Shown: in pieces, positions 27-5,377 of the stretch
Layout: every line of letters begins with the position of its first letter
How positions within the stretch are numbered: the first letter of the stretch is position 1
NCBI GenBank assembly: GCA_014729315.1
Contig: WJKD01000536.1
Location: forward strand, 1 to 5,849
Source of the DNA: Promethearchaeota archaeon
GTDB lineage: Archaea > Asgardarchaeota > Lokiarchaeia > Sigynarchaeales > SOKP01
Length of the DNA stretch: 5,849 nt
Direction of reading: 5' to 3'
The notes under the pieces: generated by a model
What the model was told of the DNA's origin: nothing
The model's input: only the letters and a program-made list of their open reading frames with translations
The model's database searches: none
Position numbers and translations under genes: made by a program

Positions 27-31
27 GGAGG
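27..31 (+). promoter_or_regulatory. Shine-Dalgarno GGAGG deciding the GTPase start
   Basis: A perfect GGAGG lies 10 nt before the ATG at 42. The ATG at 91 has no comparable site at usable spacing, since the GGAG at 57-60 is 30 nt away. This supports 42 as the true initiator and therefore the need to splice. The A/T-rich stretch 1-16 could hold the TATA box, but the window edge prevents a firm call. Confidence 0.75.
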
Positions 32-41
32 CAGAATATAA

Positions 42-690
42 ATGCCTTCCCGCAGAGGAGACGGGACTTTAGTTTTTAAGATATGCTTCTATGGACCAAA
101 TAGTCTTCATTACGAAGGCTAGGTCAAGCCTTGGAGGCAAGACTACAGCACTTGAATGGGTTTATAACAAGGAAGGATTAGCTTCTGGTGATATGCAGCA
201 AATTCAAGACCCGACGGGAAGAACCTTATTCTTTGACAGAGTGGTCGCCCGAGTATCGAATGTAGTCTTCCAAGTATATACAGTTGCCGGACAACGGCGC
301 CACAAGTTCCAACGACAAACAGTCCTTAAGGGAACTGACGCAGTTATTTTTGTATGGGATTCGCTTATTGATCAATGGCAAGAAAACATTTGGTCGTTAA
401 AAGAGCTCTTGAAATTTTACGGAGACAAATTGATTCCTCCAAATCCCGACGATCCAACTCCTGAAGTTCCTCTGGTTGTTCTTGCGAATAAACGGGACTT
501 AGAGGATATTGTCGATGTATCCAAGATCCGACAAGTCTTAGATACCGCAAAGTTAAATCACACATTAATCTACGAGACGATTGCAATCACTGGAATAAAT
601 GTCAAGAGAGCGTTTGTGTACGCAGCCCGACAAGCAGTTCTGAATCATTATAAAAAGTTATCCGGGAAGTCGATGGAAGAAACTGCGTAA
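42..690 (+). CDS. MglA/Arf-like small GTPase, spliced gene: join(42..99,128..690)
   Basis: Ras-superfamily GTPase, probably a cytosolic molecular switch; its partner is unknown. Exon 1 (42-99, 58 nt) and exon 2 (128-690, 563 nt) total 621 nt, or 206 residues plus stop. Seen in the spliced product: beta-1 FKICFYG; P-loop G18-P-S-L-G-G-K24-T25; switch II TVAGQ (71-75), with Thr where classical Ras proteins have the DxxG Asp, as in bacterial MglA; the G4 base-recognition motif NKRD (140-143); and a G5-like AITG (172-175). There is no signal peptide, membrane segment or lipidation motif. The start at 42 is chosen because GGAGG lies 10 nt upstream and its frame supplies beta-1 and the first P-loop Gly-Pro. 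The ATG at 91 would give 199 residues without beta-1 and with Arg in place of the first P-loop Gly. Without splicing, the frame from 42 stops at TAG 120-122 after 26 residues. A frameshifted pseudogene is the alternative, but all downstream motifs are intact. Family call is firm; the spliced structure is inferred. Confidence 0.87.
86..136 (+). other. Bulge-helix-bulge fold around the GTPase intron
   Basis: Read as RNA: the central 4-bp helix is GACC (94-97) with GGTC (122-125). The first 3-nt bulge is AAA (98-100) and the second is AAG (126-128). The inner helix is eight consecutive pairs, 101-108 with 114-121 (seven Watson-Crick plus one U-G, U104-G118), closed by a 5-nt loop at 109-113. The outer helix is G93-C129, A91-U131, C89-G133, U88-G134, U87-A135 and C86-G136, broken by single pyrimidine mismatches 92/130 and 90/132. 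Two opposed 3-nt bulges separated by exactly 4 bp are what the archaeal tRNA-splicing endonuclease recognises. The outer helix is the weakest part. Confidence 0.85.
100..127 (+). other. 28-nt archaeal mRNA intron (BHB type) in the GTPase P-loop
   Basis: This segment interrupts the P-loop codons. Removing it joins GGA-CCA-A to GC-CTT-GGA, giving GPSLGGKTT and moving the frame by one, because 28 is not a multiple of 3. The exact edges can slide by up to three bases, since CAA occurs at both junctions (97-99 and 125-127); every choice yields the same mRNA. The position given assumes cleavage after the second base of each bulge, which is the usual archaeal pattern. The intron carries a stop (TAG 120-122) in the exon 1 frame. 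Known biology: archaeal splicing endonuclease cuts BHB motifs and RtcB-type ligase joins the exons. Such introns are usual in tRNA and rRNA but rare in protein genes, cbf5 of Thermoproteota being the classic case. A small insertion mutation is the alternative. Confidence 0.82.
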
Positions 691-1486: not shown

Positions 1487-4400
1487 CTATTTTTCTGGTG
1501 AATTTACTTCTTCCTTATCAATTTCTTTAGAACATTTGCCAATTGCGGCAATGGAATCCTCCTCGTATAAATTGATCACTCTAACTCCCTTAGCTTTTCT
1601 ATGCGTAATTCGAATCGAATCCACGGGTACGCGTATTACTTGTCCTTTTTCAGTACCTATTAAGAGATCCTTCTCTTTAGCTATTCTGATTGCGATGACT
1701 TGATCGTTTTCATCATCGTTTAAGGATATATTTATTACTCCTTTAGCGGCTCTTCCAGTTTTTCGATATTCTTCTATTTTAGTTCTCTGTCCGTGTCCAT
1801 TCTTTGTTAAAGTGAGAATAATATCGTCATCTGTAACAAGGAGAGTATCAACAACCTTATCTCCTTCTCTTAAATCAACTGCTTTGACGCCCATCGAATT
1901 CCGTCCCAATTCTCTAAGTTCTGATTCGTCGAATCTTACAGCGTAGCCCATTTCGGTAGCAACAAATATTTCTTGGATTTCGTTAGAGAGTTTTTTAACG
2001 CTTACCAATTGATCGTCTTTACGTATCCTTTGAGCTCTGATACCTGTGGATTGTATTTTCGAGAATAATCTAAGAGGGGTTTTTTTGATGGTTCCATTTC
2101 TCGTGGTCATTACGAGCATTTCATTGGTGTTAAAGTTATTTATAGGTATCATTTCTGAAATAATCTCTCCATCGCGTAAAGGAATAAGATTTACAATAGG
2201 TTTCCCTTTTGCGTTTCTTTTTTGTAGAGGGATTTCGTAAGCTTTCATCGAATACACCCTTCCCTTAGAAGTGAAAAATAAAATTGTATCGTGCGTCGAG
2301 CATACAAAGAGATCAGTAATAAAATCCTCGTCGTCGACCGTCATCCCTCTTTTGCCACGACCTCCTCTCCTTTGTGTTCTATAGACTGCTAAAGACATCC
2401 GTTTAATATAATGATTTTTAGTCATTATAACGATTGTAGGAACATTTTTGATTAAATCCTGTCTCTCGATGTTTAATATATCCTCTTGGATAATAATCTC
2501 CGTTTTCCTCTCGTCGCCGTATTTTTTACTGAGTTCGGTTAATTCGTCTTTGATCATTTCTAACCGAATTTTTCGGCTTTCCAAAATTTTTTGGTATCCC
2601 TCAATTTCCTTTGTCAATGAGTCTTTTTCGTCGAATAACTTTTGTTGTTCTAAGTTGGTAAGTCGAGACAATGGCATGCCTAAAATTGCTTTAACTTGAA
2701 TTTCAGAAAGATTGTATGTTTTCATGAGCGAATCTTGCGCTTCGGTGGTATCTTTTGATGATTTGATAATACGCACTACATTGTCAATGTCATTTAAGGC
2801 GATAATCAATCCCTCAACTTTGTGCAACCGCTTTTGAGCTTTCTTAAGTTTGAATTCTGTTCTTCTATAAATAACGATTAACCGATGATCAACATATTCC
2901 GTAATCAGTTCTTTAAGATTTAAAATCTTAGGCTGCTTTCCGTCATTTATTAGAACTAAGTTGATAATGTTAACGTTCTTTAGAAGCCTCGTACGTTTAT
3001 ACAAAATGTTTTTGATAATTTGTGGTTGAGCTTTTTGCGTAATTTCCAAAACTATCCGCATTCCTTTTCTATCAGACTCGTCTCTTAAATCTTTAACATC
3101 TTTTAATTTTCCATCTTTAATGAGCTTCGCAATTGACTCAATCAATTTCTTTTTGTTTACCAAATAAGGAATTTCTGTTATGATAAGTTTTCTCTGATCC
3201 CCTTTTTCCTCTAATTCCGTTCTGCCCCTTAAAACAACTTTGCCTAGTCCGCTAGCGTAAGCGTTATATATTCCACTAAGATTAGTAATTACGCCTCCAG
3301 TAGGAAAGTCGGGACCCTTTATGATTTCCATGAGTTCCTCGATAGATATGTCGGGGTTATCGATGGTAGAGATAATCCCGGTGCATACTTCCATCAAATT
3401 ATGAGGAACCATAGAAGTTGCCATTCCAACAGCAATGCCCTTTGTTCCGTTGAGCAAAACATTGGGAAGTTTTGAGGGCATATATCGGGGTTCGACCTCA
3501 CTTCCGTCAAAATTTGGCTGAAAATCTACGGTTTCTTGGTTAATGTCTCCGATTATCTCTTCGGCGATTTGAGAAAGGCGTGCCTCTGTATTATGATTAA
3601 TAAAGCCGTTTGCTACGAAAGAATGACACTCAGAATCAACTCGAATCGAATAAACCCGTTCTTCAGGGAGTTTTTTAATTGATTGGATTTCTTGAAATAT
3701 ATAATTATCCTCAATAATTCCCTCCAGCAATGTATAATCTTTTTCTTCAACTAAAGTTCGAATATAATTAATCTTATTCCTAAGTGATGAATATCGATCG
3801 ATATTTTGTTTTTGAAAATATTCATTAAATCTATAATTATATTTCTTTTTAAAATAATTACCTAGATGAGGGATATAATCAGTCTTACTAAGTCTTGTCT
3901 TATCATTATTACAAATTTCTTCAAGTTTTTTATTTTTTCTGTCTGAAAAAAAACCAATTTGGTTAATAAAAGCTAATTTTGAATCCATCCCGAGTATAGT
4001 TATTCGAAAAGTATCACTCCTGGGATCTAAAATAAGATGACTTGTCAAAATTCCAAAATTGAGTAAAAGGATTTTCAATTGACTGAGCAATTTTACACTT
4101 TTTGACACATAGGTTAAGTTGGATGACTTGCCACCATGTCTTGAATCTGTGGCAATTTGGATCGATCCATCTCCCTCAAATAAACCACGTAAAAAGGACG
4201 ATACGACACTTTTACTTGATCTTAAAATCGAAAAAGGAATTTCTTTCTCATCCGATTTTACGGGAGTTAGTCCAATACTATATAAAAAATCGAGAGCATC
4301 TCTATAGTGTAATGAAAATTCTTTCCAACCCTTATATTCGTCCCTTTCATAGACAGAAATTCCTGGGAAAGACTTGAGCAATCCTTGCTTAACTTTTTCA

Positions 4401-5377
4401 TAATAATAATAATTCTTGTTATTAAAGGAGAGTCGTTGTTGCTGTGTGTCAGAAATACTCCCCTCAGCTACGAGTGCCCCCAATGTGAATGCTAAATCTT
4501 CAGTGATTTCGGTCGGAAAATCAATATCACTTCCATTTTCATTTACCTCTGGGATATGTCGCTCTGTAGAATAATTTTGTTTTGGAAATAATCCTTTTCG
4601 ATTAATAATTATAATGTCATTTTCTGAAAGTACTCCTAATGTTTTCCAAATTTTTTTCGGTTTACCATTATTATCTGTACTCCAACAAAGAACAGGATGA
4701 TTGGCTGATCCTTTAATTGTGTAACCTTGTTTAGTTTTTACTTGAATAATTTTATGAACTCCAGAATCAAAAAACATTGTAGCTTTTTTAGTGCTTCCTT
4801 CAAATGAGAGAATTTCAATATCAATATCGACCTCATATCCTTCAGAACGATAACTTAAAAGACTCTTATTAGTATCAAACTCTTGTGTTTGACCCCCATT
4901 TAGATGACATACAATTTTTTTTGAAATAGTTGAAGTATCATTTTTTATGTAATTAGAGAGTTCTGTAATAGGCATTAATCCCTCCTTTGTCAGTAGAAGA
5001 GTATCCCCAGTAACACAATATCGCATTGCTGCTGGCGGATCGCCGTCAACGGAACCGAAATTGCCTTGAGGATCGATCAATTGGTATCTCATCGAGAAGT
5101 CTTGAGCCATTCTGACTAAGCTATTATAAACTGCTTGGTCTCCGTGCGGATGGTACTTTCCAAGCACCTCTCCAACAATCCTAGCGCTCTTTACATGAGA
5201 ACGGTTATAATTATAATTATTGTCAGCCATTGCGTAAATAATTCTTCTATGAACGGGTTTAAGGCCGTCTCTCACGTCTGGAATCGCTCGCCCTACGACA
5301 ACAGACATTGCGTAATCGATGTAACTGCTCTTCATCTCGTCTTTCAGTAAAACTTCCCTAATCTCTTCTGTAGTCAA
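1487..5377 (-). CDS. gyrA: DNA gyrase subunit A precursor, intein-containing
   Basis: A 1296-residue precursor: N-extein 1-120, intein 121-596, C-extein 597-1296, giving an 820-residue GyrA after splicing, a normal length. GyrA is the DNA breakage-reunion subunit of the A2B2 gyrase, which introduces negative supercoils using ATP. Visible signatures are the N-terminal [31 protein letters not shown] (74-80), and AAMRY ending in catalytic R119-Y120. The C-extein resumes TEARL and continues through the tower, coiled-coil and C-gate regions to about 985. A C-terminal beta-pinwheel then carries the GyrA box QRRGGRG (1002-1008), which separates gyrase from topoisomerase IV. The start is TTG 5375-5377 with AAGGG 8 nt upstream; no ATG, GTG or other TTG exists between the gyrB stop and this codon, and the next Met (15) would cut conserved sequence. 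The gene lies 45 nt after gyrB, so the two are probably an operon. Bacterial-type gyrase in archaea is generally regarded as acquired by transfer. Confidence 0.97.
3590..5017 (-). mobile_element. GyrA intein with LAGLIDADG homing endonuclease
   Basis: A 476-residue in-frame intein (precursor residues 121-596) directly after catalytic Tyr120. Splicing blocks: N-terminal C121 in [13 protein letters not shown]; block [10 protein letters not shown] (223-231), with Ser where TxxH usually begins; block [18 protein letters not shown] (575-591); C-terminal H595-N596; and +1 nucleophile T597. The endonuclease domain lies between roughly 285 and 480, with two LAGLIDADG helices: [10 protein letters not shown] (acid E305) and [12 protein letters not shown] (acid D403). 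Both acids are present, so it may still cut. Family knowledge: the Mycobacterium GyrA inteins occupy the same site, begin with CITGD, have a TANH block B, and use a Thr +1 residue. The DNA has 28 CpG in about 1.42 kb by hand count, far below the flanking gene. Mature GyrA requires splicing, since the insert interrupts the active site. Intein identity and edges are firm; endonuclease activity is inferred. Confidence 0.96.

What the first reader, a model, noticed from the sequence alone, without database searches (positions are those of the whole stretch)
86..136. Bulge-helix-bulge mini-intron inside a protein-coding GTPase gene
Three independent signals coincide. (1) A 28-nt insert breaks the frame inside the P-loop, and its removal restores GPSLGGKTT exactly. 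(2) The upstream frame from ATG 42, with a perfect Shine-Dalgarno, supplies the missing N-terminus (MPSRRGDGTLVFKICFYGP). (3) The junctions fold as a canonical BHB: a 4-bp central helix GACC/GGTC, 3-nt bulges AAA and AAG placed symmetrically at the two junctions, and an 8-bp inner stem with a 5-nt loop. Protein-gene introns of this class are rare in archaea (cbf5 is the classic case), and this one is near the minimum size imaginable. If real, routine gene callers would mis-start or discard such genes, so other cases may be hidden in related genomes.
Basis: partly seen in the sequence, partly recalled or inferred. Interest (0 to 1): 0.95.

Follow-up and report, generated by a model that had tools for sequence, protein, structure and literature searches.

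The report
Archaeal mini-introns in conserved protein genes
In DNA that looks like that of an Asgard archaeon, 28 letters interrupt the GTP-binding loop of a conserved switch-protein gene and are likely cut out of the messenger RNA by the enzyme that splices transfer RNAs; related archaea carry similar inserts of about 30 letters at the same and other places in this gene and in two more genes, which suggests that these relatives of eukaryotes splice some messages by a route of their own.

Summary
Removing window 100-127 (28 nt) restores a 206-aa MglA/Arf-like GTPase matching uninterrupted Lokiarchaeia orthologues. The junctions obey the bulge-helix-bulge (BHB) rule: 4-bp helix GACC/GGTC, 3-nt bulges, cuts after bulge base 2, 8-bp inner stem.

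Seven of 41 GTPase loci from relatives hold 15 more inserts (29-33 nt, up to four per gene), some at exactly shared sites with different but re-paired sequences. Seven more lie in cdhA of four genomes and one in the P-loop of aIF5B/IF-2. Of 23 inserts tested, 17 have a perfect central helix at a coding-correct junction, against 1.7 expected.

Seven intron-bearing relatives encode EndA (two copies in six) and RtcB; two of them were checked for tRNAs and have many over-long ones. Bypassing, pseudogene and assembly error fit poorly. Splicing itself is not shown: I have no RNA data. The size is not exceptional (cbf5 introns are 16-44 bp, PMC2738675). Such introns are rare: among 293 orthologue-like ORFs in one genome only the GTPase showed them.

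The parts
27..31 (+). Shine-Dalgarno-like GGAGG, 10 nt before ATG 42
   Evidence: sequence
42..99 (+). exon 1 of the MglA/Arf-like GTPase, ending inside the codon for Ser20 of the P-loop
84..91 (+). outer helix, 5' arm (pairs with 132-139)
94..97 (+). central helix GACC, 5' arm in exon 1 (pairs with 122-125)
   Evidence: sequence
98..100 (+). 5' bulge AAA; predicted cut between 99 and 100
   Evidence: geometry plus coding frame
100..127 (+). 28-nt insert, predicted BHB intron
101..108 (+). inner stem, 5' arm (pairs with 114-121; loop 109-113 ATTAC)
114..121 (+). inner stem, 3' arm
122..125 (+). central helix GGTC, 3' arm in the intron
   Evidence: sequence
126..128 (+). 3' bulge AAG; predicted cut between 127 and 128
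   Evidence: geometry plus coding frame
128..690 (+). exon 2 of the GTPase, stop codon included
132..139 (+). outer helix, 3' arm in exon 2

Best explanation
The 28 nt at window 100-127 interrupt the P-loop codons of an otherwise intact, highly conserved MglA/Arf-like GTPase gene, and they are likely a bulge-helix-bulge intron that the tRNA-splicing endonuclease EndA would cut out of the pre-mRNA, with RtcB predicted to rejoin the exons. Shown: the insert, the restored protein, BHB geometry at a coding-correct junction, and 23 further inserts of 29-34 nt in the same gene and in cdhA and aIF5B/IF-2 of related Lokiarchaeia, several at exactly shared sites with different but re-paired sequences. 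Shown in relatives only (the window's own genome is not held): EndA in 10 of 10 genomes tested, two copies in 8, RtcB in 10 of 10, and many tRNA genes with introns in three genomes. Inferred: EndA is the heterotetrameric (alpha-beta)2 type with relaxed specificity; unspliced message yields a short dead-end peptide in most cases; the introns persist in active-site codons because an imprecise deletion there would destroy the protein, while precise loss, gain or transfer is frequent.
For: Spliced product matches uninterrupted orthologues, 89-94% identity for the 19 aligned, P-loop invariant. 16 GTPase inserts of 28-33 nt at eight sites, five sites shared by two to four lineages. Same site, different intron, re-paired: codon 20 GACC with GGTC (window) or GGTT (L030); codon 42 GGTG with TACC, CATT, CACT (4/4) and CACA (3/4); cdhA codon 70, three different introns, each 4/4 with inner stems of 7-10 bp. 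Perfect central helix at strictly coding-equivalent cuts: 17 of 23 against 1.7 expected, tail 1.9e-16; with looser cuts 17 against 4.4, tail 5e-9. First bulge base A in 20 of 23 (5') and 21 of 23 (3'). EndA and RtcB; one EndA copy of G006 keeps the catalytic-position His, the other has Ser there. RF00005 matches of 95 nt or more: 11 of 24 in G006, 14 of 28 in G007, 13 of 20 in G010 (my count).
Against: No RNA evidence. No uninterrupted protein over 95% identical to the spliced L038 product in the 120 hits listed. 6 of 23 inserts have only 3 of 4 central pairs; five of 16 GTPase inserts were equalled by 14-31% of shuffles (573-1226 of 4000) and a sixth by 3.4%. The aIF5B insert has a perfect central helix but only one contiguous inner pair. 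Two L041 inserts are in phase and stop-free and could be read through. EndA, RtcB and tRNA introns were not testable in the window's own genome. G010, whose GTPase is intronless, also has EndA, RtcB and tRNA introns, so the machinery does not predict the mRNA introns. A scan for BHB-joined split ORFs in G006 showed no excess (89 against 105 for a decoy rule).
Confidence: 0.92

Rival explanations
1. Translational bypassing: the ribosome would hop over the hairpin insert, as in phage T4 gene 60 or the byp elements of some yeast mitochondria (both recalled).
For: Short hairpin inserts inside coding genes; many have a stop near the start.
Against: Hopping needs matching take-off and landing codons (recalled rule); only 1 of 16 GTPase inserts has them. 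Inserts fall in all three codon phases. Exon-intron pairing at a fixed offset from both cuts is not expected from hopping.
Confidence: 0.03
2. The insert regulates: incomplete splicing would limit the GTPase level, as proposed for the cbf5 intron in PMC2738675. This adds to the intron reading rather than replacing it.
For: Inserts lie near the 5' end and in or near active-site codons, so an unspliced message gives no active protein in most cases.
Against: Presence is patchy between close relatives: L039 has three, while L002, L005 and L007, 97.5-99% identical in protein, have none; sisters L020 and L021 have one each at different sites.
Confidence: 0.1
3. Pseudogene or assembly error: the insert marks a dead or misassembled copy.
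For: A frame break with a stop; source data are metagenome assemblies, and four assemblies break inside this gene.
Against: 28-34-nt inserts recur at shared sites in ten lineages and three genes. The flanking exons differ from intronless orthologues mostly by synonymous codons (window against L016: 98 synonymous, 20 not). Each intron-bearing genome has a single copy at E 1e-40. A truly decayed gene next to it in L039 looks different: only its last part remains.
Confidence: 0.03
4. Some inserts are read through as short peptide insertions rather than spliced.
For: Two of the three L041 inserts (codons 13 and 42) are 30 nt, in phase and stop-free.
Against: Both sites are shared with frame-shifting or stop-containing inserts in L039, L038 or L020, and the third L041 insert has a stop. 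12 of 16 GTPase inserts hold an in-frame stop and two more shift the frame.
Confidence: 0.04

Closest known systems
cbf5 pre-mRNA introns of Desulfurococcales and Sulfolobales (PMC2738675: section 8 read in full, other parts as passages)
   Same: Short (16-44 bp) introns in a protein gene; BHB, often relaxed; predicted cuts between bulge bases 2 and 3; link to heterotetrameric EndA; disrupts a catalytic-residue codon; patchy presence among relatives.
   Different: There one gene, with one intron site discussed. Here three genes, eight sites in one of them, up to four introns in a 612-nt coding sequence, in Lokiarchaeia, with turnover between close relatives. Splicing of cbf5 is supported by cDNA; here it is not tested.
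Archaeal tRNA BHB introns
   Same: Same geometry; tRNA introns modelled in the same genomes are 18-44 nt, 12 of 23 of them 27-31 nt, and 20 of 23 have a 4/4 central helix, with a score that favours it.
   Different: They sit in tRNA, not mRNA, and do not compete with translating ribosomes.
Putative 12-bp introns in an archaeal virus genome (Peng et al., as cited in PMC2738675)
   Same: Short inserts in protein genes, proposed as introns.
   Different: 12 bp; splicing not demonstrated; possibly tolerated in the protein (as told there).
Spliceosomal, group I and group II introns
   Same: Interrupt genes.
   Different: The inserts have no GT-AG borders, are far too short for a ribozyme, and no Rfam family reaches its threshold in the window.
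Inteins
   Same: Sit in conserved active-site motifs (recalled); the window's gyrA carries one.
   Different: Removed from protein, far longer, no stop codons.

Membership tests
Archaeal BHB (EndA-spliced) intron | 4-bp helix flanked by two 3-nt bulges on opposite strands at the two junctions | tested here: met
   window: sequence; 17 of 23 inserts 4/4, the other 6 of 23 have 3/4
Archaeal BHB (EndA-spliced) intron | cuts after base 2 of each bulge join the exons correctly | tested here: met
   prediction by frame and orthologue match only:
Archaeal BHB (EndA-spliced) intron | pairing kept while intron sequence changes | tested here: met
   five shared GTPase sites and two shared cdhA sites with different intron sequences
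Archaeal BHB (EndA-spliced) intron | outer exon helix (hBHBh') | tested here: inconclusive
   8 bp 84-91/132-139 but an internal loop next to the bulge; weak in most others: relaxed motif
Archaeal BHB (EndA-spliced) intron | EndA and a ligase in the organism | tested here: inconclusive
   present in 10 of 10 relatives tested; the window's genome is not held; G122 and G129 were not tested
Archaeal BHB (EndA-spliced) intron | spliced RNA in vivo, cleavage in vitro | not testable with these tools
   no RNA data
Heterotetrameric (alpha-beta)2 EndA | one catalytic and one catalytically inactive subunit | tested here: inconclusive
   G006: one copy aligns best to 3p1z chain B and keeps His where 3ajv has Ala; the other has Ser where 1a79 has His. 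Residue roles are recalled, assembly untested, only G006 read
Programmed translational bypassing | identical take-off and landing codons (recalled) | tested here: not met
   1 of 16 GTPase inserts
Spliceosomal intron | GT...AG borders | tested here: not met
   borders of 23 inserts listed; none is GT...AG
Group I / group II intron | ribozyme core | tested here: not met
   28-34 nt long; no Rfam match at gathering threshold in the window (relatives not scanned)

The most novel reading that the evidence does not exclude
Lokiarchaeia, in the archaeal group closest to eukaryotes, keep a living population of ~30-nt tRNA-type introns in conserved, often active-site codons of protein genes (GTPase P-loop, aIF5B P-loop, CODH cysteine motif), several per message and clustered towards the 5' end, gained and lost fast enough to differ between sister species: a protein-enzyme route of multi-intron mRNA splicing independent of the spliceosome.
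Probability: 0.55. Interest if true: 0.92.

Novelty: new variant of a known kind. Interest (0 to 1): 0.86.

Why it matters
The experimentally supported protein-gene introns of archaea in the papers I could read are those of cbf5 in some Crenarchaeota (PMC2738675, 2009; PMC4810243, 2016, passages, says 'confined'); PMC2738675 adds that putative introns in other genes had been predicted. Multi-intron messages in Asgard archaea would show that mRNA splicing by the tRNA endonuclease is not limited to one gene or to Crenarchaeota, and would offer a prokaryotic system for measuring intron gain and loss, 5' bias and conflict between splicing and translation. In practice gene callers would truncate or mis-start such genes: the longest ORF of the window's GTPase starts at ATG 91, with a wrong N-terminus and half a P-loop. 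More cases are probably hidden.

Tried and rejected
Whole-genome test in the window's own organism: not possible, no genome held. A scan for BHB motifs joining split ORFs in 331,679 nt of G006 gave 89 candidates against 105 for a decoy pairing rule, and 73 against 94 in intronless loci; it recovered 4 of 16 known GTPase introns, so it has little power; an earlier version was noisier. Homology screens replaced it. tRNA modelling by free folding failed for most genes; a template score worked but rewards a perfect central helix, so its 20 of 23 is biased upward; one 159-nt tRNA (L241) was left out, and L201, L148 and L244 are doubtful. A recurring loop of the form C-NNNNC-G in many inserts was seen but not tested. 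No relative in viral contigs; nothing in PADLOC for P0001. A break in the gene upstream of the GTPase in L039 is a decayed helicase remnant, not an intron. Stops flagged in 20 distant Asgard homologues do not interrupt the domain: each has one open frame from P-loop to C-terminus. Of the Arf-family matches listed, three carry internal stops: in G008:C184 the stops precede the start codon; G002:C28 and G003:C148 were not examined. The 24 Lokiarchaeial genomes without a GTPase hit at 1e-40 show no high-identity fragment, apart from a contig-end piece in G149. The shuffles keep base composition, not dinucleotides. The listings were cut. In one search, seven stop-bearing rows from distant genomes (48-54% identity) and two close rows that start at residues 17 (G004) and 22 (G112) were not examined; several truncated rows (such as G104, G145, G176) were not examined. 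Predicting the spliced structure was not attempted.

Full report
What is there. The window carries a GTPase gene (42-690), a YfcE-like phosphodiesterase, DNA gyrase A with an intein and the end of gyrase B. No genome is held for it. Its GTPase groups with Lokiarchaeia, but its place among them is weakly resolved, so the organism is inferred. The GTPase belongs to the Arf/Ras superfamily; the best matches among solved structures are bacterial MglA. The 120 listed relatives are 201-207 aa long. Nineteen aligned ones are 89-94% identical and share a nearly invariant start, MPSRRGDGTLVFKICFYGPSLGGKTT. In the window this stretch is broken by 28 nt with an in-frame stop.

The junction. Removing 100-127 restores the P-loop; three slid cuts give the same protein. 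Of these equivalent cuts the one at 100-127 is where a splicing endonuclease would cut a BHB: 4-bp helix GACC/GGTC, 3-nt bulges, cut after the second base of each. That structure is tied with the minimum free energy. An equal or better BHB arose in 1 of 4000 shuffles of the insert.

Relatives. A scan of one genome per species gave 41 GTPase loci, all titled Lokiarchaeota or Lokiarchaeia MAGs. Spliced alignment found 15 inserts in seven of them: L020 (1), L021 (1), L025 (2), L030 (1), L038 (4), L039 (3), L041 (3) (some cuts slid by a few bases within the coding-equivalent range). With the window that makes 16, of 28-33 nt, at eight sites: codons 13, 20, 35, 42, 69, 71, 103 and 106. Five sites are shared by two to four lineages, with conserved exon flanks and different intron sequences. 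At codon 20 the window pairs GACC with GGTC and L030 pairs GACC with GGTT; at codon 42 the exon GGTG meets TACC, CATT, CACT and, with one mismatch, CACA.

Chance. For each insert I listed the cuts giving the best protein and asked whether any has a perfect central helix: 17 of 23, against 1.7 expected from shuffled inserts, tail 1.9e-16; with looser cuts 17 against 4.4, tail 5e-9 (16 GTPase and 7 cdhA inserts; the aIF5B insert is not included). By gene: 12 of 16 against 1.4, and 5 of 7 against 0.3. The stems are uneven: five of 16 GTPase inserts were equalled by 14-31% of shuffles. The first bulge base is A in 20 of 23 (5') and 21 of 23 (3').

Other genes. I compared 1.116 Mb of G006 (L038's genome) with 1.2 Mb of the complete relative G010: 293 orthologue-like ORFs covering 92,609 aa. 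Four were flagged. Only the GTPase shows intron-like breaks; two others have a stop near the end of the match and one is a short ORF that I take to be spurious. ORFs matched over less than 60% of their length were not counted, so a heavily broken gene could be missed. The reverse comparison flagged three ORFs in G010. The neighbourhoods of the eight positive loci show no other intron-like break among genes with an orthologue in the intronless loci. In 95.5 kb of G008 (L041's genome) one more gene appeared: cdhA, the CODH/ACS alpha subunit (TIGR00314), with inserts of 29 and 31 nt beside the CTYGKC motif. A phylum search matched cdhA in 110 of 227 genomes. Four rows with internal stops or a start at residue 76 were examined (G008, G129, G122, G003) and hold seven inserts of 29-34 nt (positions in L311, L312 and L314 are on the reverse complement). 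Three genomes share the site after codon 69 and two share the site before codon 77, with perfect central helices; the two G122 inserts lie elsewhere and reach 3 of 4 central pairs. aIF5B/IF-2 matched in 206 of 227 genomes; G008's copy holds 30 nt in GHIDHG|KTT, again a P-loop, with a 4/4 central helix but a weak inner stem. The G004 and G112 rows start at residues 17 and 22 and could not be examined. An HdrA-like protein showed no stop-broken row among the close relatives listed; G008's copy is cut by a contig end. So these introns are rare but not confined to one gene.

Machinery. EndA (PF01974) is found in 10 of 10 genomes tested, twice in 8; of the seven with GTPase introns, six have two copies and G004 one. 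In G006 one copy keeps the histidine that is Ala in 3ajv, and the other has Ser where 1a79 has His, which suggests a catalytic and a structural subunit, the layout that PMC2738675 links to relaxed motifs in cbf5. RtcB is in 10 of 10 (in two contig-end pieces in G004). tRNA matches of 95 nt or more make up 11 of 24 in G006, 14 of 28 in G007 and 13 of 20 in G010 (my count). Introns modelled in 23 such genes are 18-44 nt, 12 of them 27-31 nt, with a 4/4 central helix in 20 (the score favours that). The protein-gene inserts thus resemble the tRNA introns of the same cells. G010, whose GTPase is intronless, has the same machinery.

Evolution. On a tree of 41 spliced genes the intron label needs six changes, at least three forced by well-supported branches. 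L039 has three introns; L002, L005 and L007, 97.5-99% identical in protein, have none. L020 and L021 are sisters with one intron each at different sites. Shared sites with patchy presence fit an intron-rich ancestor with repeated precise loss, or repeated gain or transfer at preferred sites; I cannot decide. The known sites lie towards the 5' end: within 315 of 612 nt in the GTPase (about 0.005 for eight independent sites), within 77 of 780 codons in cdhA (about 0.001) (tests chosen after the fact), and at codon 23/24 of 601 in aIF5B. Several lie in active-site motifs, as PMC2738675 reports for cbf5.

Rivals. Bypassing needs matching codons and finds them in 1 of 16. Pseudogenes are contradicted by mostly synonymous differences and single-copy status. 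Two L041 inserts could be read through, but share sites with stop-containing or frame-shifting ones elsewhere.

Literature. Eight searches of the open PMC library listed no title or abstract opening reporting introns in Asgard protein genes; subscription papers and preprints are not held. Read: section 8 and passages of PMC2738675; passages of PMC4810243, PMC12397907, PMC10933270 and PMC12918454; the rest only as listings.

Verdict. A real feature, most likely a BHB intron, part of a sparse but recurrent set in Lokiarchaeia. What is missing is RNA.

Noticed in passing
window 1487-5377 (-): DNA gyrase A interrupted by an intein with a LAGLIDADG domain; the gyrA ORF of relative G010 (L172) is 812 aa against 1296 here, so probably lacks it.
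   Followed up: no
L277:6612-6640 and 6661-6691; L311, L312, L314 (cdhA): Seven BHB-like inserts of 29-34 nt in cdhA of four Lokiarchaeia genomes.
   Followed up: yes
L317 (G008:C42), aIF5B/IF-2 codon 23/24: 30-nt BHB-like insert in the P-loop; rows for G004 and G112 start at residues 17 and 22 and may hide more.
   Followed up: partly
L320, L321, L322 (G008, HdrA-like paralogues): In-frame stops flagged as TGA stand next to or in place of a conserved Cys: possible selenocysteine codons.
   Followed up: no
L039:4200-4499: Decayed remnant of a DEAD-box-helicase-like gene beside the intron-bearing GTPase.
   Followed up: yes
GTPase inserts of the window, L021, L030, L038, L039, L041: Several inserts fold to a 5-nt loop ending in C (ATTAC, ATTTC, TAGTC, ATCCC, AGTTC, AATTC, TTTTC); significance not tested.
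   Followed up: no
tRNA genes of G006, G007 and G010 (L094, L201, L167, L148, L235-L254): Many tRNAs appear to hold introns, often outside the canonical anticodon-loop position.
   Followed up: partly
G139:C81, G122:C27, G127:C16, G149:C204: Contigs of four assemblies end inside the GTPase gene.
   Followed up: partly
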